Part shown: positions 27,060 through 63,744 of the stretch, piece by piece
Layout: every line of letters starts with the position of its first letter
Numbering within the stretch: position 1 is the first letter of the stretch
Origin: Tachypleus tridentatus
Lineage: Eukaryota > Arthropoda > Merostomata > Xiphosura > Limulidae
Direction of reading: 5' to 3'
Assembly: GCF_004210375.1 (NCBI RefSeq)
Contig: NC_134830.1
Location: 1,612,001-1,676,000, forward strand
Length of the DNA: 64,000 nt
Notes under the pieces: generated by a model
Seen by the model: only the letters and a program-made list of their open reading frames with translations
Databases searched by the model: none
What the model was told of the DNA's origin: nothing
Made by a program: the position numbers and the translations under genes

Positions 27060-27436
27060 ATTACAAAAGAAAAGAATGAACATTAAAATAATTAAAGAAA
27101 GAAAACTTTAATTTTTATCTAATTTATCAGAAATGTCTTCATAAAACTGTTTCAATTACCGTACTGTTTAAGACCTTAAAAAGTATAGCCACAGAGATTT
27201 TTCAAAACTGATTTAAAAAATTAAATAGAAATATAACTATAATATTAACTCTTGCACCATGACATCTTAAAAAAGTGATAAATATGTTTATGAATGTTTC
27301 ATGTGAACCTTTGCTTTTGTGCTCTGTTAAGGTGTATTAACACATGTGCGTTGTGTTTTGTCAACACAACATGTTCGTAATGTTTTTTGAACACAAATCT
27401 TCCCCACTTCTAGAGTTACATTTACCATTAGAGTGT
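27060..27436. other. AT-rich flank of the satellite, no gene seen
   Basis: Single-copy AT-rich DNA directly after the satellite. I see no open frame, repeat or RNA gene in it. Confidence 0.6.
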
Positions 27437-27632
27437 TGTAATGATTATATTATTTTATAAGTTAAAAGTTTAAACATTACACCAATTGTCACAATCAAAC
27501 TTCAGTAATTGGTATTTGTTGTAATGATTATTTTATTTTATAGGTTAAATGATTATATTATTTTTTAGGTTAAAAGTTTAAACATTACACTAATTGTCAC
27601 AATCAAACATCAGTAATTGGTATTTTTTATAG
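27437..27632. repeat. Local duplication of about 80 bp
   Basis: A segment that starts near GTAATGATTATATTATTTTA and ends near CAGTAATTGGTATT occurs twice, at about 27437-27514 and 27548-27625, with few differences. A shorter partial copy of its start lies between them (about 27519-27546). This looks like replication slippage in AT-rich DNA. The following stretch to about 27840 shows nothing I can name. Confidence 0.75.
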
Positions 27633-27839
27633 AACTTTAACTAAAAAGATTCTATGCAGTTAAAGATTTCTGAAAAATAAAATGAAACCGTGTTTGAGAA
27701 AGACAATGTGTAACATTTTAAAAACAGTCTTTATTTGTATATTTCTTATTGAGAGTTTTAACAAACACTTTTGACATTAAAGAATATGAAATTATTTAAT
27801 AAGTTGTTTGTAAAGTGGTTTGTAGACTGCACATTTTAC

Positions 27840-28220
27840 ACTCTTGTATATTTTTTACAGACTACAGAAGTAGGCTTCATGTGAAGAATACACAGGTTAG
27901 AATTCACACACACATATATAGACCAAGGCCAGTGAAATCCACGTATATGTAGACTACAGTGGTTAGAAACCACCCACATGTATATAGACTAATGCAATGA
28001 AGTTCACTCATGTATAGAAAACAGACTATAGTATTTCCATATGTATAGTTTACGGATAGAAAATACACAGACTACAGGAGCTATAAATATACATATATGA
28101 ATTCCAAAAATATATATATAAAGCTTAGAGACAGTAAAATCTATATATATGTGGACTGCAGATGGTAAACTGCACACTACACATAGGTAGAATCCATACA
28201 GACAGTAGAAATGAAACATG
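27840..28220. repeat. Degenerate minisatellite, unit about 40-45 bp
   Basis: Phrases such as TATAGACTACAG, GGTTAGAA and CACATGTATATAGAC recur roughly every 40-45 bp with many changes. The array is old and diverged compared with the younger arrays elsewhere in the window. An apparent minus-strand open frame in it has a composition typical of AT-rich noncoding repeat and is not reported as a gene. Confidence 0.5.
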
Positions 28221-28426
28221 TAGGCTACATATACCCAACATATGTCATTTTCATAGATAAAGTAATATTCTAAGGTTGCTCAGTTTAACTGAATAACAGA
28301 TAAAGTCACACATTTCTGTTAACGTGTGTAATTCTAAGTATATACAGCTGCACTTTGCTTTAAGATAGGATAACTACTGTACGTTTATTTTCAGTACCTT
28401 TAACATAGTCTTCTATTGTGGTTCGT

Positions 28427-28436
28427 TTTATTTATT
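28427..28436 (-). promoter_or_regulatory. Possible polyadenylation signals for the 28.6-kb exon
   Basis: Read on the minus strand, two overlapping AATAAA hexamers lie about 170 bases after the stop codon of the secreted-protein exon. The spacing would suit a short 3' UTR. The region is AT-rich, so chance occurrence is quite possible. The rest of 28221-28604 shows nothing else. Confidence 0.35.
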
Positions 28437-28604
28437 TCTATATTGTTTCTGTCCATTTTATGAATGGTTTTATCACTTGGGCAGTTTGTTTAAGTCATTA
28501 TTTAAGTCTACATAAGAAAAGATTCTTGACTTTAAAATGGTGTGTGAACTTTAAGTCACGTCTGTTAAGATGTTGACACTTCACTACACAAGAGTTTCTC
28601 TGTT

Positions 28605-29081
28605 TTAGAAGTGTTTAGGCAACCCCTTAACTAGAGTATAAAGAGCATCTAGTTTGCTTATGTGGCCATGAGGTAAGTCATGAAGCGGAGAGCTACGTGG
28701 CCTGTAACCCCAGTATGGCTCCTTAACTCCATGGTAAATGAAAGGTTTTGTATCCGTGTACCCAGGACATTGGGCAGGATTTTCTTGACAGTATTCTCGA
28801 CCCAGAGCCTTCACGTATCCGAAGCCTTTTTCGACCTGCGCGAAGGGGTTACTTCCATACTTCACTCCAAAGCCATACGTGAACAACTCCCATGGACCTT
28901 TGCCGTAATTTTCCGGGGAGTCGAATTGGGCTCTCTTTTCATAGATGATAACGGATTTTGACAAATTCTCAATTGGATTCTTTTGGTCTTTATTATAATC
29001 ATGAAGTTTTGTTGAAGACAAGCCTTTGTTTTCATGTTTGGATGCACAGACCCAGATTGCTTCCTGACACAAAATAAATCC
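28605..29081 (-). CDS. Terminal exon of an unrecognised small secreted protein
   Basis: An open frame of about 158 codons runs from a 3' splice site to a stop at 28605. The first residues after the splice, GFILCQEAIWVCASK, look like the end of a signal peptide core and its cleavage region, so the start codon should sit in an upstream exon (higher coordinates). The mature part is about 145 residues, rich in Tyr, Gly, Pro, Lys and His, with only two cysteines (EYCQENPAQCPGY) and a C-terminal PYWGYRPRSSP stretch. There are no membrane segments or catalytic motifs I know. The exon is visibly more GC-rich than its surroundings, which supports real coding. The intron is phase 0 and cuts the signal peptide, an arrangement known from many arthropod cuticle-protein genes, but no chitin-binding R&R motif is visible. 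Function unknown; I am fairly sure it is a genuine exon, not a repeat artefact. Confidence 0.7.
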   Translation of the reverse strand, partial: GFILCQEAIWVCASKHENKGLSSTKLHDYNKDQKNPIENLSKSVIIYEKRAQFDSPENYGKGPWELFTYGFGVKYGSNPFAQVEKGFGYVKALGREYCQENPAQCPGYTDTKPFIYHGVKEPYWGYRPRSSPLHDLPHGHISKLDALYTLVKGLPKHF

Positions 29082-29100
29082 CTGGAGAGAAAAACACAGA
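29082..29100 (-). promoter_or_regulatory. 3' splice site of the 28.6-kb exon
   Basis: In minus-strand sense the sequence TGTTTTTCTCTCCAG ends in CAG directly before the codon GGA that opens the coding frame. It is a strong pyrimidine tract plus acceptor. The frame is closed by context, not by an ATG: the first frame-compatible in-exon candidate is a TTG inside the hydrophobic stretch, which makes a spliced start much more likely. Confidence 0.7.
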
Positions 29101-29104
29101 GCAT

Positions 29105-30735
29105 TTTATGAATAGGAGAGAAGAAAAATATAAATCATGAACAGGAGAATAAAAAACATAAATGATGAACAGGAGAGTAGAAAAACATAAATCATGAACA
29201 GGAGAGTAGAAAATACAACAAGTTATGAACGGGAGAAGACAATAACGGAAGTTAGGAACGGGAGGAGATAAAAACAGAAGATAGGAACGGGAAAAAATAA
29301 AAACGGAAGTTAGGAACGGGATGAGATAAAAACGGAAGTTACGAACGGGAGGAGATAAAAACAAGTTAAGAACGGGAGATAAGAGAAAGAGAATTTATGA
29401 ACAGGAGAGGAGAAAACAGAACAAGTTATGAACGGGAGGAGATAAAAACAAGTTAGGAACGGGAGAAGATAAAAACAAGTTAGAAACGGGAGTAGATAAA
29501 AACGGAAGTTAGGAACGGGAGGAGATAAAAACAGAAGATAGGAACGGGAAGAAATAAAACGGAAGTTAGGAACGGATGAGATAAAACGGAAGTTACGAAC
29601 GGAGGAGATAAAACAAGTTAAGAACGGGAGATAAGAGAAAGAGAATTTATGAACAGGAGAGGAGAAAACAGAACAAGTTATGAACGGGAGGAGATAAAAA
29701 CAAGTTAGGAACGGGAGAAGATAAAAACAAGTTAGGAACGGGAGGAGATAAAAACGGAAGTTAGGAAAGGGAGGAGATAAAAACGGAAGTTAGGAACGGG
29801 AGGAGATAAAAACGGAAGTTAGGAACGGGAGGAGATAAAAAACAGAAGTTAGGAACGGGAGGAGATAAAAACGGAAGTTAGGGACGGGTGGAGATAATAA
29901 CGGAGGTTAGGAACGGGAGGAGATAAAAACGGAAGGAAATAAAAACGGAAGTTAGGAACGGGAGGAGATAAAAACGGAAGTTAAGAACGAGAGGAGAAAA
30001 AACGGAAGTTGGGAACGGGAGAAGATAAAAACAAGTTTAGAACGGGAGATAAGAGAAAGAGTAGTTATGAACAGGAGAGAAGAAAACAGAACAGGTTATG
30101 AACGGGAAAGATAAAAACAAGTTAGAAACGCGAGGAGATAAAAACAAGTTAGGAACGGGAGTAGATAAAAAAACGGAAGTTAGGAACGGGAGGAGATAAA
30201 ACGGAAGTTAGGAATGGGAGGAGATAAAAACGGAAGTTGGGAACGGGAGAAGATAAAAACAGAAGTTAGGAACGGGAGATAAGAGAAAGATAATTTATGA
30301 ACAGGAGAGGAGAAAACAAAACAAGTTATGAACGGGAGGAGAGAAAAACGGAAGTTAGGAACGGGAGGAGATAAAAACGGAAGTTAGGAACAGGAGGAGA
30401 TAAAAACGGAAGTTGGGAACGGGAGAAGATAAAAACAGAAGTTAGGAACGGGAGATAAGAGAAAGAGAATTTATGAACAGGAGAGGAGAAAATAGAACAA
30501 GTTATGAACGGGAGGAAATAAAAACAAAAGTTAGGAACGGGAGAAGATAAAAACAGGTTAGGAACGGGAGGAAAGAAAAACGGAAGTTAGGAATGGGAGG
30601 AGATAAAAACGGAAGTTAGGAACGGGAGGAGATAAAAACAGAAGTTAGAAACGGGAGATAAGAGAAAGAGAACTTATGAACAGGAGAGGAGAAAACAGAA
30701 CAAGTTATGAATAACGGGAAAAGCAATTAAAAATA
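29105..30735. repeat. Purine-rich 29-bp minisatellite inside the intron
   Basis: The common unit is about 29 bp, for example GTTAGGAACGGGAGGAGATA followed by AAAACGGAA, in roughly 50 copies. A longer variant block (GGGAGATAAGAGAAAGA, then TTATGAACAGGAGAGGAGAA) returns irregularly at about 29370, 29630, 30045, 30275, 30455 and 30655, giving a loose higher-order pattern. The plus strand is mostly A and G. In transcript sense (minus) the units are pyrimidine tracts with a CTAAC element, and from 29084 to 30672 there is no AG dinucleotide. The array begins within about 25 bases of the splice acceptor. Confidence 0.95.
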
Positions 30736-31094
30736 GGAGAGAAGAAGATCATGAATTTTTTAAAGAACTTAATATAAGTAAGTAATAAGACAAACGAATT
30801 AATAAAATATGGATACAGTAAGTTCTGTGTTTTATGTGAAAAGCCACATTAGACCATCTTCTCTGTCCACCATGGTGAATCTGGTCGGCAAATTTACGAT
30901 GTACCACAGAGAGAAAACAATAATAACTATGATCTAATAAATATCATTGTAAACTTAGATAAAAACAAATAATTCTAAATAATTATACAATCTTGACATA
31001 ACTATGTTTCTGATGGATGAATGGATAGATGAACAAGGATAGTGATTAGTCTATTATATAATAAAACATTCACGAATTGTACATTGAACGACAG
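30736..31094. other. Unannotated AT-rich stretch
   Basis: I see no gene or clear repeat here beyond a short run of GGATGAATGGATAGATGAA-like tetranucleotide repeats near 31014. Confidence 0.5.
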
Positions 31095-31105
31095 TCGTTA
31101 CTGAA

Positions 31106-31379
31106 TGGTCTGGCATGGTCAAGCGTGTTAAGACGTGCGACTCGTAATCTGAGGGTCGCGGGTTCGCATCCCCGTCGCACCAAACATGCTCATCTTTTCA
31201 GCCGTGGGAGCGTTATAATGTAACGGTCAATCCCACTATTCGTTGGTAAAAGAGTAGCCCAAGAGTTGGCGTGGTGATGACTACTTGCCTTCCCTCTAGT
31301 CTTACACTGCTAAATTAGGGACGGCTAGCACAGATAGCCCTCGAGTAGCTTTGTGCGAAATTCTAAAATAAACAAACAA
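31106..31379 (+). mobile_element. tRNA-derived SINE, family A, near full length
   Basis: The 5' part is tRNA-like, with an A-box-like start (TGGCATGGTCAAGCG) and a B-box-like GGTTCGCATCC. A conserved body follows (CAATCCCACTATTCGTTGGT, then GCCCAAGAGTTGGCG), and the 3' end is AATAAACAAACA. It is flanked by the perfect 11-bp target duplication TCGTTACTGAA at 31095-31105 and 31380-31390, which shows LINE-driven insertion. Related copies lie at 46.47 kb and 57.34 kb in reverse orientation. The tRNA-like head has lost parts of the anticodon stem, so this is not a functional tRNA gene. Confidence 0.92.
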
Positions 31380-31390
31380 TCGTTACTGAA

Positions 31391-32103
31391 ATTCTTTTTA
31401 ATTTCTATACGAAGTATTTCAAAAGTTGATCAGAATTAAAAGAAAAACCTAATTACGACACGTTGATGATGTAGTTTCTATCTGGCCTAACAATAGAATA
31501 TATTGGTGGACATTTTCGTCACTAGAGCAGAAAAAAGACTTGTTATTTGTATCTATAGAAAACCAACAAACCGTTTAAGCTAGGATTATTCTTTTTTATC
31601 TCTCGTGGCAACATTTAAAACATCAATTATAACTTTAATGTTTTTAAGAACTTACAGAATAACTCACTGATGTACTATTAATATTGAATTAAAAACTTTA
31701 GTATCGAATACTGATCTTACCAAAGCAATACGTATAGGGACCATTATGTGAGTTGGAAATCTTAAGATGTGAACGCACTACACCACTCTTGTAGAACTCT
31801 GTAGAAACTCTGGTTCATTTAGTTTACTCTGGTTGAGGTTGAACCAAAATGTATCTAGGTTAATATCGACCTACATGTAGCAGAGAATGTTTGTTTGGAG
31901 ACAAGAACTTCGATATTGGAACAATGGAAATGACAGGTGGAAACTGACTACAGAGAAAAATATGCTGATAACAAAAGAAATATGAAACTTAACCAATATT
32001 GAAACTGGATACTTTTGTAGGTGATAAGTTTTCGTGTTTGTTTTCTTTAGCAGTAGAGAAGAAACTACTATTCATTACTAACGATTTATCATGAAAATAA
32101 AAA
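31391..32103. other. Unannotated AT-rich stretch
   Basis: Single-copy AT-rich sequence with no open frame of note, no repeat and no RNA gene that I can recognise. Confidence 0.5.
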
Positions 32104-34954: not shown

Positions 34955-35720
34955 AATGGTTGCACTAACTGGATAATTCATCAATATAAACTATCAACTA
35001 TTGTAATGGCACTTTATAAATGTTGTATTAAATTGATAATTCATCAATATAAACTATCAACTATTGTAATGGCACTTTATAAATGTTGTATTAAATTGAT
35101 AATTCATCAATATAAACTATCAACTATTGTAATGGCACTTTATAAATGTTGTATTAAATTGATAATTCATCAATATAAACTATCAACTATTGTAATGGCA
35201 CTTTATAAATGTTGTATTAAATTGATAATTCATCAATATAAACTATCAACTATTGTAATGGCACTTTATAAATGTTGTATTAAATTGATAATTCATCAAT
35301 ATAAACAATCAACTATTGTAATGACACTTTATAAATGTTGTATTAAATTGATAATTCATCAATATAAACTATCAACTATTGTAATGGCACTTTATAAATG
35401 TTGTATTAAATTGATAATTCATCAATATAAACTATCAACTATTGTAATGGCACTTTATAAATGTTGTATTAAATTGATAATTCATCAATATAAACTATCA
35501 ACTATTGTAATGGCACTTTATAAATGTTGTATTAAATTGATAATTCATCAATATAAACTATCAACTATTGTAATGGCACTTTATAAATGTTGTATTAAAT
35601 TGATAATTCATCAATATAAACTATCAACTATTGTAATGGCGCTTTATAAATGTTGTATTAAATTGCTAATTCATCTATCAACTATATATAATGACATTTT
35701 ATTAAAGTTCTATTAAATCG
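34955..35720. repeat. 63-bp minisatellite, about 12 copies, open on the plus strand
   Basis: The unit contains TTGATAATTCATCAATATAA, ACTATCAACTATTGTAATGG and CACTTTATAAATGTTGTATTAAA. Copies are almost identical and the last ones are diverged. Because 63 is a multiple of three, a plus-strand frame from 34928 to 35716 stays open and would encode a 21-residue repeat (MALYKCCIKLIIHQYKLSTIV is the unit, 21 residues counted from its Met; core KCCIKLIIHQYKLS). No splice sites, promoter or coding composition support it, so I annotate it as repeat, not gene. Each unit holds a short inverted repeat, ATTGAT-AATTC-ATCAAT. Confidence 0.93.
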
Positions 35721-36282: not shown

Positions 36283-37575
36283 AGTGACATCGTGTAGAAA
36301 CATTCTGTTCACCCTCTCCAACCTTTAGCACATTAGGTACAAACATTCTGTTTACCCTCTCCAACCTTTATCACATAATGTACTAACATTCTGTTCACCC
36401 TCTCCAACCTTTATCACATAATGTACTAACATTCTGTTCACCCTCTCCAACCTTTATCACATAATGTACTAACATTCTGTTCACCCTCTCCAACCTTTAT
36501 CACATAATGTACTAACATTCTGTTCACCCTCTCCAACCTTTATTACATCATGTAGAAACATTCTGTTCACCCTTCCCAACCTTCACTACATCATGTAGGA
36601 ACATTCTGTTCACCCTTTCCAACCTTTATTACATTATGTACAAACATCCTGTTTACCCTTCCCAACCTTCAATACATAATGTAGAAACATTCTGTTCACC
36701 CTCTCCAACCTTTACAACATAATGTAGAAACATTCTGTTCACCCTTTCCAACCATTGGTACATCATGTACAAACATTCTGTTCACCCTCTCCAACCTTTA
36801 TTATATCATGTAGAAACATTCTTTTCACCCTTTCCAACCTTTATTACATTATGTACAAACATTCTGTTAACCCTCTTCAACCTTTATTGCATCATGTACA
36901 AACATTCTGTTCACTCTTTCTCCAACCTTTATTACATCATGTACAAACATTCTGTTCACCTTTACCAACCTTTATTACATCATGTACAAACATTCTGTTT
37001 ACCCTTTCCAACCTTCAATACATAATGTAGAAACATTCTGTTCACCCTCCTAAACCTTTATTACATCATGTACAGACATTCTGTTCACCCTCCTAAACCT
37101 TTATTACATCATGTACAGACATTCTTTTCACCCTCTCCAACCTTTACAACATAATGTAGAAACATTCTGTTCACCCTTTCCAACCATTGGTACATCATGT
37201 ACAAACATTCTGGTCACCCTCTCCAACCTTTATTAGATCATGTAGAAACATTCTGTTCACCCTTTCCAACCTTTATTACATCATGTACAAACATTCTGTT
37301 AACCCTCTTCAACCTTTATTGCATCATGTACAAACATTCTGTTCACTCTCTCTCCAACCTTTATTACATCATGTACAAACATTCTGTTCACCCTTTCCAA
37401 CCATTGTTACATCATGTACAAACATTCTGTTCACCCTTTCCAACCATTGTTACATCATGTACAAACATTCTGTTCACCCTCCTCAACCTTTATTACATCA
37501 TGTACAAACATTCTCTTCACCCTTCTTAACCTTTACTACATCATGTACAAATATTCTGTTCACCCTCCTTAACCT
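36283..37575. repeat. 43-bp minisatellite, about 30 copies, with a block duplication
   Basis: The unit contains ACATTCTGTTCACCCTCTCC and AACCTTTATTACATCATGTA. Variants (TTAACCCTCTTCAACC, CACTCTTTCTCC, ACCATTGGTACATC) occur in the same order near 36690-37000 and 37125-37400. This shows that a block of about ten units was duplicated with an offset of about 432 bp. The plus strand is pyrimidine-rich. Confidence 0.95.
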
Positions 37576-52392: not shown

Positions 52393-53145
52393 TTATCCTT
52401 CGACTAATCCGATCTGCGGACTGTCATTATGAGGAACGTACCCTTCTTGAAAGCCAAGATACAGAACAGGACTCGTAGCTAAATCTTGTGCACCAGTATG
52501 GCCGAGGTTCTTATTAAATGGCTGAATTTTGTAAAGTGTCTCCAGTACTGGACGTCCTCTCGGAGGTCCGCCTGCTCTGTAAGTTTTTTGGTCTGTGTTA
52601 GAAAATCTGTGAAGGTCCCTTTGTCCATTTGTTAAAGCGGTGAGTGATACACCTGCTAACTGATCTCCTTCACTCGGGTATTGTTCGGTGTTAAGAGGAA
52701 TAACATTCAGCGCCACTCCTCGGAGACCTTGAGTAGCTGTTGGATATGGTAACATGGCTGGAGACCTTTGTGGCAAGCCACTTGACTGCTGACCTTCGTC
52801 ATAGAGGGATGCTGGAAGTCCACCGGCATCGTGTGTTGCTTCGGGAGACTGGCCAGTAAACGGGTGAGGGACAATTCTTTCCGGCGGATCCATTTCGGAT
52901 TGTGAACCTTCTTTTGATTGTGTAGGCCTAAGGGCATATCTTCCTAATATTGACTGTCTGAAGTTCAACTGTTTTTGTCTACCGTCGTTCATACTTTGGA
53001 AATCTTCTGGTAGGTTTCCGTATCCATATTCATGATTTATTATTGGTCGGGCGAAATAAAATCTTAAAAATCCGTTTGGACGTGTATTTGATGGTGATCT
53101 TTTGTCTTCACCTTGGACCATATATCCTAACAATATCGTTAGAAC
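52393..53145 (-). CDS. Terminal exon of an unrecognised cysteine-free secreted protein
   Basis: An open frame of 250 codons runs from a 3' splice site to a TAA at 52395-52393. The first residues, VLTILLGYMVQGEDKRSPS, read as the hydrophobic core and cleavage end of a signal peptide, so the start codon lies in an upstream exon. The mature protein of about 235 residues has no cysteine and is rich in Pro, Gln, Gly, Ser and Asn, with low-complexity character. It has a moderately conserved-looking N-terminal part (NGFLRFYFARPIINHEYGYG) and a C-terminal part with YRAGGPPRGRPVLETLYKIQ. There are no known domains, membrane segments or repeats. GC content and codon quality are clearly above the surroundings. 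Gene structure (phase-0 intron inside the signal peptide, long last exon, same strand) equals that of the exon at 28.6 kb, although I see no sequence similarity between the mature proteins. A matrix, cuticle or silk-like role is possible but only inference. Confidence 0.72.
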   Translation of the reverse strand, partial: VLTILLGYMVQGEDKRSPSNTRPNGFLRFYFARPIINHEYGYGNLPEDFQSMNDGRQKQLNFRQSILGRYALRPTQSKEGSQSEMDPPERIVPHPFTGQSPEATHDAGGLPASLYDEGQQSSGLPQRSPAMLPYPTATQGLRGVALNVIPLNTEQYPSEGDQLAGVSLTALTNGQRDLHRFSNTDQKTYRAGGPPRGRPVLETLYKIQPFNKNLGHTGAQDLATSPVLYLGFQEGYVPHNDSPQIGLVEG

Positions 53146-58191: not shown

Positions 58192-59775
58192 TTAATATAG
58201 GTATAAAAGCGTTCCTTTATATTGGTTTATTTTGGGTTTAAGTTGTTGTATAAGTAAGGCTTCTTTAATTTTGCGTTTGTTTATGTTTGTTTCTTTATTT
58301 AGTATTTGAGTGTTTTCTATGGTTATGTTGTGTTTATTTGACTTGCAGTGTTCGAAAACGTGTGAAGGTGACTTTTTATGTTCTTTGAATCTGGTTTCCA
58401 TTTTTCTACTTGTTTCTCCAATATAGAAGTCGTGGCAGTTATCACATTGTATTTTGTAAATAATGTTGGTGTGGTGTTTGTCAGTGTAGTTTTTACATAG
58501 TATAGACCTCAGTTTTGTGCCTGGTTTTTGAATAAATTTGGTATTAACTGGAATGTCATTTTTTGTTACTAATTTTTGCCAAATGTTGGTTATTTGTTTG
58601 CTGATGTCGGGAATATATTGTATACAGCAGTATATGGTTTCGTGATTTTTTGATTCGTGAGATATATTTACTTTTGTTGGTTGATTTTGCTTTCTGTCTA
58701 GGTGTGTGCGTATAATGTTTTCTACAGTTTGTGGAGGAAACTTATTGATGTTGATGAAGTATTGTTTTATTTTGTCTAATTCATCGTTAATTTTATCTGG
58801 TGAGCATAGTTTTATGGCTGTGTTTATTTGGTTTCTTAATATGTTCAGTTTTTCTGTTTCATGTGCTCAGTCCCAAGCAATGTATAATCCAGTATGGGTG
58901 ATTTTACGGTAGATTTCTGTTTTCAATTGTGTGTCGGTTCTTGTAATTTTGAGGTTAAGAAATCATATTTGATTGCTTTCTTCCTGTTCACAAGTGAAGT
59001 TAATGTTGGGATGTATAGAGTTAATGTGATTGAAAAAATTAAGTGTGTGTTCTGTAGATGTGAATCCCGCAACCGTGTCATCTACATATTTGTACCAGTA
59101 TAGTGGTGGATGTAATGCTGTGTTAATTGTTTGTGTTTCAACTTGTGTCATAAAAATATTGGCTAGAACTGGTGATACTGGGTTGCCCATGCTCAGGCCA
59201 TTTGTTTGTATATAGTTTTGGTTGTTGAACATGAAGTTTGTCTTTATCGTGGTGAATTCTATGAGGGTTGCTAACTGGTTACTGGGAATTTCTATGGTTG
59301 GGTTAGGGTCTCGGATATAGAGTTCTAAGGCTATCTTGCAGGCTTCAGTGGTTGGAACTTCTGTAAAGAGGGATATAACATCGAAACTGGCCATTGAGGC
59401 TTTATGATTAAGTTGATTTGGATTAGACTTGAAATTAAAAGAGTCTTTGATGAATGAGCTGGCTGATGTTACATATTTGGAGAATGCCCATGCTATGTAT
59501 TTACCAAGATTGTAATTAAACGATTCATATGTGGACATTATTTGTCGTAATGGACAATCTGGTTTATGAGGTTTGGGGTGCCGTATATTTGCGGTGTGTG
59601 TGAGTCGGTTTTACGTAGGTAGGAATAAAGTGTTTGTGAAATTGTGTTGGCTTTTTTCATTTGTAGTAGTAATTTGTTCAGTTGCGTCTCGTGTGTCTTT
59701 GTTGGATTTGTGTGTATTGGTTTAAATTTGTTCGTGTCTGATAGGATGTTATTCATTTTTTGGATGTAGGATGTA
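58192..59775 (-). pseudogene. Penelope-like RT plus GIY-YIG endonuclease, broken
   Basis: In minus-strand order: an N-terminal part (59756-59538) ending in RKTDSHTPQIYGTP; the RT core (59538-58963) with MASFDVISLFTEVP, NGLSMGNPVSPVLANIFM and YWYKYVDDT (the YVDD catalytic box); a linker; and then the GIY-YIG endonuclease end with FYIGETSRKMETRFKEHKKS and HVFEHC near 58440-58350. Breaks: a 1-base frame change near 59578 after YGTP, a TGA at about 58963 after EESNQI, and another TGA in the linker near 58868. The 5' part of the usual reading frame is missing at the inversion junction. The RT would copy RNA into DNA primed at a nick made by the endonuclease; this copy cannot. Confidence 0.88.
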
Positions 59776-60107
59776 TTTATTCGTGTTCATAAAAAGTCAC
59801 CTTCACACGTTTTCGAACACTGCAAGTCAAATAAACACAACATAACCATAGAAAACACTCAAATACTAAATAAAGAAACAAACATAAACAAAGGCAAAAT
59901 TAAAGAAGCCTTACTTATACAACAACTTAAAACCAAAATAAACCAATAAAAAGGAACGCCTTTATACCTATATTAATATAATAAATAAATAAAATTATAT
60001 ATTCAAAACATCTAACACCGCCCTCTACATTCCGACACTCAGTTACACAACCCCTTACAAACATGTGGTCAGCTTCCGGTCAGTTACCTCTTTTTTTCTT
60101 TGTGAAC

Positions 60108-60133
60108 CTGACGATGACCGAAGAAGGTCGAAA
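60108..60133 (+). ncRNA. Hammerhead-like core motif, copy 3
   Basis: This is the same motif as copy 2, in the inverted terminal copy, so it faces the opposite way. The sequence is unchanged between both arms, including flanks GTGAAC and CGTTGTTCGC. Confidence 0.45.
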
Positions 60134-60204
60134 CGTTGTTCGCTCTTCTATGTAAAATATTTTCTCAACCCAAACGAACCGTTTTTGCATACAAACATTA
60201 CTCT

Positions 60205-60664
60205 GTCATACGAGTGTCGCCTAAAACTTGGCAATAGGTGCTATTGAGCAGTTACGTTCTTTCCAGATTAGCACAAGCTTAGTGACTGCTGAGCACCGCT
60301 ATTATAAATTACTTGATTTGTTCCTTCTAATTACGTAAACCTTACATTAAGCCTATTCTGGATACTAATGTTGATGAAATTTATAAACCTATAAGGTTAT
60401 TTGTATGTCTTCTCTAAAGAGTACACACTACACGGTATGTTGGTTGCAACTGGTGTTTCTATTTCATTTGACAACATAAAGTTTATAATAAACAGGCTCT
60501 AGTGTACAAGCTAGTGTAGCTATCATCATACGTTAGTAATTATTCCCAGAGTATCTCTCACCATGTGTCTGTACGTACTCCATGCGTAGTCTACATTATA
60601 AGTCTATAGGTATTATATGGGTAATTTTCATCATACGTCTGTAGATATTCAAACGATAAGTATA
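60205..60664. other. Stretch without a recognised gene
   Basis: No supported feature except a weak repeat of CATCATACGT and CATCATACGTCTGTAG at about 60520 and 60630. Confidence 0.5.
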
Positions 60665-60667
60665 ATA

Positions 60668-60851
60668 AATATCAACCATTAGATTGAATTTTGGTAAGTG
60701 TAACACACATTAGAAGCATGCGTCAACCATTAGAATGAATTTTGATAAGTGTAACACGTGTTAAAAGCAAGCGTCAACCATTAGAATCAACTTTGGTAAG
60801 TGTAACACGTGTTAAAAGCATGCGTCAACCATTAGAATGAATTTTGGTAAG
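60668..60851. repeat. 51-bp minisatellite cut by a hAT insertion
   Basis: About 3.5 copies of CAACCATTAGAATGAATTTT, GGTAAGTGTAACACGTGTTA, AAAGCATGCGT. The last copy stops after TTTTGGTAAG, where the hAT end CAGGGGCGTAGCC begins. The missing rest of the unit (TGTAACACG) should reappear on the far side of the transposon. Confidence 0.9.
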
Positions 60852-61062
60852 CAGGGGCGTAGCCAAGTGGGGGTTGGGGATTAAATCCCCCCATGAACCC
60901 AAACTTTTTAGACAAGTTCAGTTGCCACCTGTGAAGTTTCATAAAGATCCGTGATTGCATGGCATATAATTTCACATACAACAAATGGTCAAATGCAAAT
61001 TTCTGATTGAACACTTTTAATACAGCAAGTTTTGTCAGAACTAGAGAAATACAATTGAATAT

Positions 61063-63744
61063 CTATGAAAGGCTTAAACGCCTGTTCGTTTTTGCCAGGA
61101 CATCTACAACACAGTTTGGTTCAACTTTAATATCACGGTGAATGTATAATGAGGCCAGGCCATTCAATCGATCTTCAGGAGTGATATTTCTCAAATACGT
61201 TTTGAGTCTTCTGAGAGTTGAAAACGAACGCTCCACTGAGCTCGTTGACACAGGCAGCGTGGCAAATACTTTCAACAGTCTAGAAATGACTGGGAACATT
61301 TGTGCATTGCACATTGCATATGCATTTATGACATTTTTTAGTCTGTTGTTCGCAAGCGATTTGTACCAAACCCTAAGCTCACCAACTACAGCTAGTGAAG
61401 TGCTGTCAATGTCAGCCTTGTATATATTACCAACTCTTTAATTTGGTCACATTGTTGTGCTGTAGGTTCTGACCGTTCTGTGGTAGCTCCTGATGGTGGT
61501 AGACAATGAAGTTTGTAAGGAGAGTTTTGTGACTGGACAGACAGTCACATATTTGTGAAAAAAATTAATCAACAAATGGTACAAATACAACAATACGAAA
61601 GTATTCCTCAAGGCGTTTGTGGGTTAGCACGGTACATCTGTCTTTTATCCTTCCTTGGCATTATGATGTCAATTTGAAGCTCACTACACAGAGTTTAAGC
61701 CTCACAGAAAATGTTGTTAAATTCATTCACAGTATTATTTCTGAGTGAACGGATTAAATCTTCCACTATTTCTACGTGATGCATCGCAGCACCTAAATTA
61801 ATGTTCTGTTGCTGCAGTAAGTTGCACAAAGGTAAACTAAAGGAAAACAATTTAGCAATGGTAAGTAGAGTTATGATAAATTCTGGCTGTGTTATAGAAC
61901 ACAACAATTGATTGGTTTGCGTGGCAGAATCTCTGTCTTGTCAACCTGATATGGTCTCAAGGGCATCTACAACTGTATGGATTAATTCTAGAAAGACAAT
62001 GAAATGACTGAGTCATGCCTCTCAACCCACCGGGTGAGGCAGATACCTTTCAAACTTTTTTTTTCGATTCAGGTGCTTTATTCTCCACCGAAAGAGCCAA
62101 AACGTGCTTTCTTTTGGGTGTATTGAGAAAGTTTTCAATGCTAGAAATTACTTCCATGCAATTTCGCACAGGAATTTCTTTACAAGCATCAGAAATTGCC
62201 AAGTTTAAAGAATGGGCACTGCAGTGTACATAGGGTGCAAGTGAGAATTTATCACTTATGTGTCTCTGGACATCATTGAATTTCCCACTCATAGAGGCAG
62301 CACCGTCGTACCCTTGTCCTCGCAGGTAAGCCATGTCAGGGCCATATTTTGTCAGATTGGTTATGATAACATCAGCGAAGTTTCTGCCTGTCACATCATG
62401 AACAGGTATAAATTGCAAAAAATCTTCTCTCATTGCAACAGAGTTGTCATTGGCATGCAAATATCTAACACACAGCAAAAACTGTTCAATGCCTGAAATA
62501 TCTGTTGTTTTATCAGCTAATATTGAGAAACACTTTGCAGCATTGACCCTGTTGACCAAAGCATCAAGAACATGAGTATCACAGGCATTGATGATTTCAT
62601 TTTGAATTTGAGGACTCAGATACGTAGCATTCCTATTTGTACTCTTAAGGCTTGCTGAAAGCTTGACATCAGTCTTTGTCCTGTAGCGCAAAATTGCCCG
62701 AAAATTCCCATCATTATTGATGGGCTCCTCATCAGTTTCACCAACAAACATTGGACCAGAATCATATTTTCTCCTCACAGCTAAACCCTGTCTCCCGCAC
62801 AGCAATACAGTATCAATAGTAGGCATTAAATATTGCCGGTTCTGTTCAATTTCTTGCTTGTAAATTGCATAAAGCTGTAAGTGCACAGATGGACTTTTGT
62901 TTACGACCTGTAGAAAATTGTTAGCTTTTTCTTTGCTGTCTTTGGTGGTACTGTTTCAATTCGTGTGCCTTGAAGTCTTCAACCACCTTCTTCCAGTTTG
63001 TGTATGGAAATTTCATTTGTTGTCCCAATTTCTGGCTTCCAACACCAGCACCATCAGGAGCAAAAAGACAGCAGTACTTGCAGAAAGCACCCTTTGCATG
63101 TTGACTGTAGAGTAGCCATCTCCACTGTGAAAGCCAACGATGCTGAAACGCAGCTTTCTTGGACCACACTGGGGGAAAACATAATCACTCTCTGGCTTCC
63201 AGGCATTCTCAAGGAGGCATTTTTTGGTTTCAGCGTTTATCTAAAAGAGACAGAAAGGCATAGTTCTAATTAAGTTATTTTGCACATAGGAAAGTTTGTT
63301 ATCAGAGTACAATAATCTCGAAGAGAAAGGCTTAGAGCTGTACTTCACAGAGCAGGCTTAACATCCTGTGGCTGTAGGCCTACAATCACTAGCAACAATG
63401 AATATTCAGTCTAAAATTCATCAGAATGTTTGCATGATTTTAATACAAAATTAATATTATAAGGAGTCGACTTACCTATTTATTAATGCTGACGTCATCA
63501 GAAATGTAATTTCCAATGTCCCAGACTGGACCTGAGGTGGTACTGGCAGCACTGGTAGAAGGCCAGGTGGTGACTCTAACAATTCAGTTGACAATTCTGA
63601 TTCAACCTGATTGGTTGCAGCAGATTGATCAGGATTAGCCTCATGAATGGATTTAAAGAACCCATGCAGTGTATTTTGCTTTTTCAGGCTTGACACAGTG
63701 AATGATTGTTTATCGCAACTTCTATTTGTCAACGTCACATTCAC
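61063..63744 (-). pseudogene. hAT-family transposase, ZMYM1/DUF4371-like, decayed
   Basis: In minus-strand order: a first segment (63744-63476) with LKKQNTLHGFFKSIHEANPD, ending at a splice-donor-like AG/GTAAGT; after a possible acceptor (CTGTCTCTTTTAG, near 63245), KKCLLENAWKPESDYVFPQ; the TTF-type zinc-finger region (63169-62921) with RWLLYSQHAKGAFCKYCCLF; the DUF4371-like catalytic region (62886-62050) with CFSILADKTTDISGIEQFLL, YLRGQGYDGAASMSGKFNDV and HCSAHSLNLAISD; a middle part (61907-61695); and the hAT dimerisation domain (61314-61063) with LPVSTSSVERSFSTLRRLKT. Breaks: frame changes near 63145, 62945 and 62055 (an A-run), and stop codons between about 62030 and 61930. The protein would cut and paste its own DNA; this copy is inactive. 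Confidence 0.88.

What the first reader, a model, noticed from the sequence alone, without database searches (positions are those of the whole stretch)
29084..30672. A 1.6-kb AG-free, branch-point-rich minisatellite directly upstream of a 3' splice site
In transcript sense (minus strand) the array is a chain of pyrimidine tracts (TTTTTATCTCCTCCCGTTCC), most units with CTAAC, the classical branch-point core. I checked line by line and found no CT on the plus strand, that is no AG in the transcript, from 29084 to 30672. The acceptor AG at 29082-29083 is the first one. AG exclusion zones normally reach tens to a few hundred bases. Here a tandem repeat seems to have expanded a splice-acceptor-like module about 50-fold without ever creating an AG. 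It could allow branch points at many distances, or attract pyrimidine-tract-binding proteins and give length-dependent splicing control.
Basis: partly seen in the sequence, partly recalled or inferred. Interest (0 to 1): 0.72.

Follow-up and report, generated by a model that had tools for sequence, protein, structure and literature searches.

The report
Repeat array grown onto splice acceptor
In a probable horseshoe-crab gene, the short signal that marks the end of an intron looks like the last copy of a tandem repeat of some 56 units, and the repeat's lack of stray splice-site letters can be explained largely by a starting unit that lacked them.

Summary
The AG-free run is real: no CT on the plus strand from 29084 to 30672. 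But the interval was cut at the first AG; unit-like sequence runs on to about 30755 and holds one AG (30674-30673). The acceptor at 29083-29082 is supported by homology: the closest paralogue has a YAG at the same phase-0 place in an alignable signal peptide, and two more have one in theirs. A predicted exon 1 (31744-31721) gives a 2,639-nt intron. The new point is that the acceptor is itself the last repeat unit, in register: 29112-29082 matches the 31-nt B1 unit ungapped at 23 of 29 positions (AG excluded), reached by 0 of 4,948 other YAG sites and 0 of 20,000 shuffles. So acceptor and array very probably share an origin; other units end mostly in CG or TG. Redistributing the observed substitutions gives 1.6-2.0 AGs in 55 units against one observed, so selection against AG is not shown; two other diverged arrays did gain AGs, so it is not excluded. 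Likeliest reading: an AG-silent minisatellite expansion, neutral for acceptor choice. Regulation by distant branch points is untested. No RNA data were available.

The parts
31721..31744 (-). Predicted coding part of exon 1 (MVPIRIAL), donor TTG|GTAAGA; inferred
   Evidence: One of 13 candidates in the window in a relaxed scan; it was below the donor threshold of a first, stricter scan. Chosen because the closest paralogue has MMIPARVIL with TTG|GTAAGC (one of 25 candidate rows there). Similarity of the surrounding 180 nt to L023 reached by 54 of 2,000 shuffles; to L024 by 323 and to L025 by 281. No RNA evidence.
29082..31720 (-). Intron 1, 2,639 nt in this model; about 63% of it is the array
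   Evidence: The 965 nt between array and predicted donor hold 55 AGs.
29082..30755 (-). Tandem array: 56 units of 25-31 nt (one of 45) from 30711 to 29082 in classes A, A27, B1, B2, C, the acceptor unit included, plus a divergent outer stretch 30755-30712
   Evidence: TRF 29220-30657 and 29108-29237; segmentation.
29082..29112 (-). Terminal unit that is the 3' splice site: branch-point candidate TTCAT (A at 29109), pyrimidine tract, CCAG
   Evidence: Ungapped in-register identity 23/29 to the B1 consensus; 0 of 4,948 YAG sites, 0 of 203 pyrimidine-rich YAG sites and 0 of 20,000 shuffles as good.
29082..29083 (-). Acceptor AG
   Evidence: Same place and phase as in the closest paralogue; similar place in two others.
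29251..29255 (-). CTAAC nearest to the acceptor, second A at 29252, 170 nt from the acceptor G
30673..30674 (-). The one AG inside the array besides the acceptor (unit at 30680, A-to-G change)
28605..29081 (-). Exon 2 coding part with stop, 158 aa; secreted-protein-like, no Pfam match
   Evidence: ORF; 3 paralogous exons, 58-59% identity over 97-140 of 158 residues; 0 Pfam families.

Best explanation
This is the 3' end of intron 1 of a small secreted-protein gene, very probably of a horseshoe crab. The last 31 nt of the intron (branch-point candidate, pyrimidine tract, acceptor) and the array upstream share one origin: the acceptor is the last unit of the array, in register. Shown: the array, its register with the acceptor, and an acceptor position shared with the closest paralogue. 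Inferred: the acceptor module is the older partner, because the paralogues have the intron without an array at their acceptors, and a segment that ended before the AG was amplified, so that copies end in YG. The array is AG-poor mainly because its founder had no AG and few substitutions in such a pyrimidine-rich unit create one. Inferred mechanism: the units bring branch-point and pyrimidine-tract signals but no AG, so every branch point within the AG-free stretch leads to the same first AG, and the array could grow or shrink without changing the splice junction. It is most likely tolerated, not a regulator.
For: AG-free run and its true limits; units in register down to the acceptor; acceptor unit 23/29 identical to B1, not matched in controls; the seven B1-class units are 71-81% identical to the acceptor unit; acceptor place and phase shared with the closest paralogue, and paralogue AG-free zones of only 15, 21 and 37 nt, with no array of 400 nt or more at the paralogue acceptors; AG expectation about 2 against 1 seen; GG-free run longer than the AG-free run. 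Two other arrays are AG-free in one strand without such a setting, window 34972-35675 (spacing 779 between AGs on the plus strand) and L013:1899-2447 (577), but their copies are 98-99% alike, so they show founder composition and not tolerance of divergence.
Against: No transcript data: splicing rests on homology and reading frame. Exon 1 is a prediction chosen among 13 candidates after a stricter scan missed it. The direction (acceptor seeded array, or array homogenisation overwrote the acceptor) is not shown; similarity of the intron end to the closest paralogue is not significant (270 of 2,000 shuffles). Of four other arrays examined whose consensus lacks AG on one strand or both, the only two diverged ones (86% and 88% matches) gained 18 and 14 AGs, so absence is not automatic. 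The joint result AG<=1, GG=0 and no new GA has P = 0.05-0.08. The simulation leaves out indels and older differences between unit classes; adding the latter would raise the expected AG count somewhat.
Confidence: 0.66

Rival explanations
1. A functional extended AG exclusion zone: branch points in the array are used at distances of 170 nt or more, and selection keeps the stretch between them and the acceptor AG-free.
For: CTAAC in 28 of 56 units and only TTCAT/TTTAT candidates within 100 nt of the acceptor; nearest CTAAC is 170 nt away. AGs are at ordinary density upstream of the array (55 in 965 nt). The one AG in the array lies in its outer part. Two other diverged arrays whose consensus lacks AG gained 18 and 14 AGs. 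Known human distant branch points reach up to 400 nt (PMC1431707, abstract and passages).
Against: The AG count is not significantly below expectation; GG is absent over an even longer run; a yUnAy candidate lies 27 nt from the acceptor, a normal distance.
Confidence: 0.18
2. The resemblance of acceptor and unit is convergence of two pyrimidine-rich sequences; an unrelated minisatellite happens to abut the acceptor.
For: Both are pyrimidine-rich. A similar unit (CTCCTGGTCATAACTTCT) forms an array at C10:7743.6k that appears, by eye, antisense to a PDZ-like exon, so such units can exist without an acceptor.
Against: 0 of 203 pyrimidine-rich YAG sites and 0 of 20,000 composition-matched shuffles reach the observed identity; the match is ungapped and in register with its neighbour.
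Confidence: 0.12
3. The array is a regulator: its repeated pyrimidine tracts bind PTB-like proteins and tune intron removal by copy number.
For: 81% pyrimidine over 1.67 kb and 31 TCTT motifs.
Against: 0 CTCTCT; no expression data; in this gene model the second exon carries the whole mature protein, so skipping it would abolish the product (inference).
Confidence: 0.08

Closest known systems
Distant-branch-point exons with large AG exclusion zones (Gooding et al. 2006, PMC1431707; abstract and passages seen)
   Same: Long AG-free stretch directly upstream of a 3' splice site, candidate branch points with pyrimidine tracts within it, AGs resuming upstream.
   Different: The known cases described there reach up to 400 nt; here the stretch is 1.6 kb of tandem repeat, and AG depletion beyond what the repeat explains is not shown.
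Ordinary intronic minisatellites (recalled as a class)
   Same: Units of about 29 nt in mixed classes with divergent ends; the window holds many other arrays (59 TRF rows, several per array).
   Different: Here the last unit is itself the splice acceptor, in register.

Membership tests
Distant-branch-point exon with AG exclusion zone | Extended AG-free region immediately upstream of the acceptor | tested here: met
   1,589 nt between the two AGs; in 41 control exon loci the longest AG-free run in the 1.5 kb upstream has median 92 and maximum 577 nt.
Distant-branch-point exon with AG exclusion zone | AG frequency normal again upstream of the zone | tested here: met
   55 AGs in the 965 nt from the array to the predicted donor.
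Distant-branch-point exon with AG exclusion zone | AG depleted more than sequence make-up and other dinucleotides explain | tested here: inconclusive
   Expected 1.6-2.0, observed 1; GG-free run is longer. But two other diverged arrays with AG-less consensus gained 18 and 14 AGs.
Distant-branch-point exon with AG exclusion zone | Branch point in use far upstream | not testable with these tools
   Needs lariat sequencing or mutagenesis.
Intronic minisatellite | Head-to-tail units of about 10-100 nt within an intron | tested here: met
   29-nt period, 49.6 copies by TRF; 56 units by segmentation. That it lies in an intron is inferred from paralogues and the predicted exon 1.
U12-type intron (motifs recalled) | TTCCTTAAC branch site and GTATCC/ATATCC donor | tested here: not met
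   0 TTCCTTAAC in the array; predicted donor GTAAGA.

The most novel reading that the evidence does not exclude
A tandemly repeated 3' splice-site module acting as one multi-branch-point acceptor: dozens of branch-point/pyrimidine-tract units over 1.6 kb all funnel to a single AG, with the array length setting splicing efficiency.
Probability: 0.08. Interest if true: 0.75.

Novelty: new variant of a known kind. Interest (0 to 1): 0.4.

Why it matters
It suggests how a minisatellite can be continuous with a working splice acceptor and yet leave the junction unchanged, because the unit carries branch-point and pyrimidine signals but no AG. If array length varies between individuals, it is a natural test of how far upstream a branch point can lie and whether extra branch-point/pyrimidine units help or hinder splicing. 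It also warns that a long AG-free zone inside a repeat is not by itself evidence of a distant branch point.

Tried and rejected
Selection against AG as the cause: not shown, on the redistribution test and the longer GG-free run; left open because. A U12-type intron: rejected. A dispersed repeat family: an exact 22-mer has 8 matches in the genome, all in this array; the whole array finds one other place, at 67% identity; a degenerate 18-mer has 17 matches, 12 here and 5 at that second place. These searches skip simple repeats and score only the best candidates, so more distant relatives may exist; whether the two arrays share descent is undecided. Common origin of the intron ends of the window gene and its paralogues: not significant (270, 1,646 and 645 of 2,000 shuffles for L023, L024, L025). 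Naming the protein: no Pfam match; one PDB match at E 0.061, taken as chance. Literature: eight searches on repeats, branch points, AG exclusion and splicing showed, in the rows listed, no paper whose title or abstract start is about a minisatellite continuous with an acceptor; the library is open-access papers only and I opened none of the listed papers except PMC1431707 (abstract and passages). PMC7815833 came from a search on horseshoe-crab genomes and I saw passages of it. All other papers: listing and start of abstract only.

Controls and their limits: the 41 exon loci are 3 paralogues, 8 of the 19 coagulin matches and the best 30 of at least 151 trypsin matches; several are near-duplicates, and the acceptors picked there are heuristic (some picks fall inside the exon), so only the longest-run figure is used. 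The YAG pool comes from window 27201-29000 and 30851-64000 and 11 loci, some of which overlap, so some sites count twice; the 27-kb satellite and the array were left out. The array table covers the window and 42 loci, arrays of 400 nt or more and period 15 or more; L044/L045, L049/L053 and L070/L071 there are duplicates or overlaps.

Full report
What is there. On the minus strand a run without AG extends from 30672 to 29084, exactly as reported. It lies in a degenerate tandem array, 29-nt consensus, 77% matches by TRF. Split at its recurrent start, the array gives 56 units of 25-31 nt (one of 45) from 30711 to 29082, the last being the acceptor, in five classes: A and A27 (TTCCTAAC...CTCCCG), B1 (31 nt), B2 (29 nt) and C. 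A further divergent stretch with unit-like sequence reaches 30755. CTAAC is in 28 of 56 units.

Where it is. The genome (2.17 Gb, 205 contigs) carries 19 matches to the coagulin family, which rang in 0 of 14 control genomes; the control genomes named are prokaryotes, and that coagulin marks horseshoe crabs is recalled knowledge. The exon downstream of the array (28605-29081) encodes 158 aa. Three paralogous exons, 58-59% identical over 97-140 of 158 residues, lie on three other contigs, as would fit the whole-genome duplications reported for horseshoe crabs (PMC7815833, passages). The closest (L023) aligns from the first residue of the exon with one gap in the first 100 columns, and a YAG precedes it in the same phase. 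In the other two (L024, L025) the protein match begins at residues 42 and 38; a YAG in phase 0 precedes an open, signal-peptide-like stretch there, placed by frame and not by alignment. Short candidate first exons were sought upstream: MVPIRIAL (window, 31744-31721), MMIPARVIL, MSCFKFVA and MFSLAIFL, with introns of 2,639, 6,640, 2,117 and 834 nt. They were picked from 13, 25, 3 and 4 candidate rows; a first scan with a stricter donor score listed the last two but not the first two. The first two resemble each other (54 of 2,000 shuffles as good over 180 nt); the 5' flanks of the last two look alike by eye. These exons are predictions.

The acceptor is a repeat unit. The last 31 nt of the intron, TTCATAAAATGCTCTGTGTTTTTCTCTCCAG, line up without gaps with the B1 unit TTCATAACTTGTTCTGTTTTCTCCTCTCCTG: 23 of 29 positions, final dinucleotide left out. 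Scored the same way against all five classes, 0 of 4,948 YAG sites from the rest of the window (27-kb satellite excluded) and 11 other loci, 0 of 203 pyrimidine-rich ones among them and 0 of 20,000 shuffles did as well; the best other site scored 0.67 and the best shuffle 0.74 against 0.79. The seven B1-class units are 71-81% identical to it over their full length. At the last two positions the 56 units read CG 41, TG 10, CA 2, CT 1, TA 1 and AG 1, the AG being the acceptor. The paralogue acceptors lack such a resemblance (0.36, 0.56 and 0.44). The simplest history is that the copied segment ended just before the AG, so copies never had one; homogenisation of the acceptor by the array is an alternative I cannot exclude.

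Is AG avoided? From 73 substitutions against class consensuses, simple rates predict 2.1 AGs (1.7 with repeated events counted once). Random redistribution of the same substitutions gives means of 2.0 and 1.6, P(0) 0.10 and 0.16, P(<=1) 0.37 and 0.49. GG is absent over a longer run and GA over a similar one. Against this reading: of four other arrays examined whose consensus lacks AG on one strand or both, two with 98-99% identical copies stayed AG-free on that strand (window 34972-35675; L013:1899-2447), while the two diverged ones, at 86% and 88%, gained 18 and 14 AGs (L026:4393-6207; window 36287-37567); and the joint scarcity of AG, GG and new GA has P 0.05-0.08. So AG absence can be explained by descent from an AG-less unit, but a weak constraint cannot be ruled out.

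How it probably works. By the scanning rule, the first AG downstream of the branch point is used, with known exceptions for AGs very close to it (PMC1431707, passages). A candidate branch point, TTCAT, lies 27 nt from the acceptor G, and the nearest CTAAC 170 nt away. Whichever is used, and equally for branch points further up to the AG at 30674, the first AG is 29083-29082. The array is therefore silent for acceptor choice (inference). Whether its branch-point and pyrimidine signals compete, help or do nothing is untested. The known cases described in that paper reach up to 400 nt, so use of the far units would be extraordinary.

Verdict. An unusual arrangement, a minisatellite continuous and in register with an acceptor that homology supports, most likely neutral.

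Noticed in passing
1-27058: About 540 copies of a 50-bp satellite at 99% matches fill 27 kb just downstream of the gene.
   Followed up: no
L026:3599-4247: A second array with a similar unit (CTGTCTTCTCCTGGTCATAACTTCTTCTAA), apparently antisense to a PDZ-like exon (by eye); it contains AGs.
   Followed up: partly
L013:1899-2447: An 18-copy AT-rich array, AG-free in gene sense, about 240 nt upstream of a coagulin exon match.
   Followed up: partly
52393-53145: Open frame of 250 aa on the minus strand that looks like an exon of another secreted protein; no Pfam match at E 0.001.
   Followed up: no
58963-62955: Reverse-transcriptase fragment (RVT_1, 58963-59610) and hAT-type transposase pieces (Dimer_Tnp_hAT 61063-61437, DUF4371 62050-62955) on the minus strand.
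   Followed up: no
31110-31385: tRNA-derived SINE-like sequence in the predicted intron (recognised by eye); ARAGORN found no tRNA gene in the window.
   Followed up: no
L023:3249-7314: The predicted intron of the closest paralogue also holds a large minisatellite (units of 53-54 bp, about 74 copies in two blocks), but about 2 kb from its acceptor.
   Followed up: no
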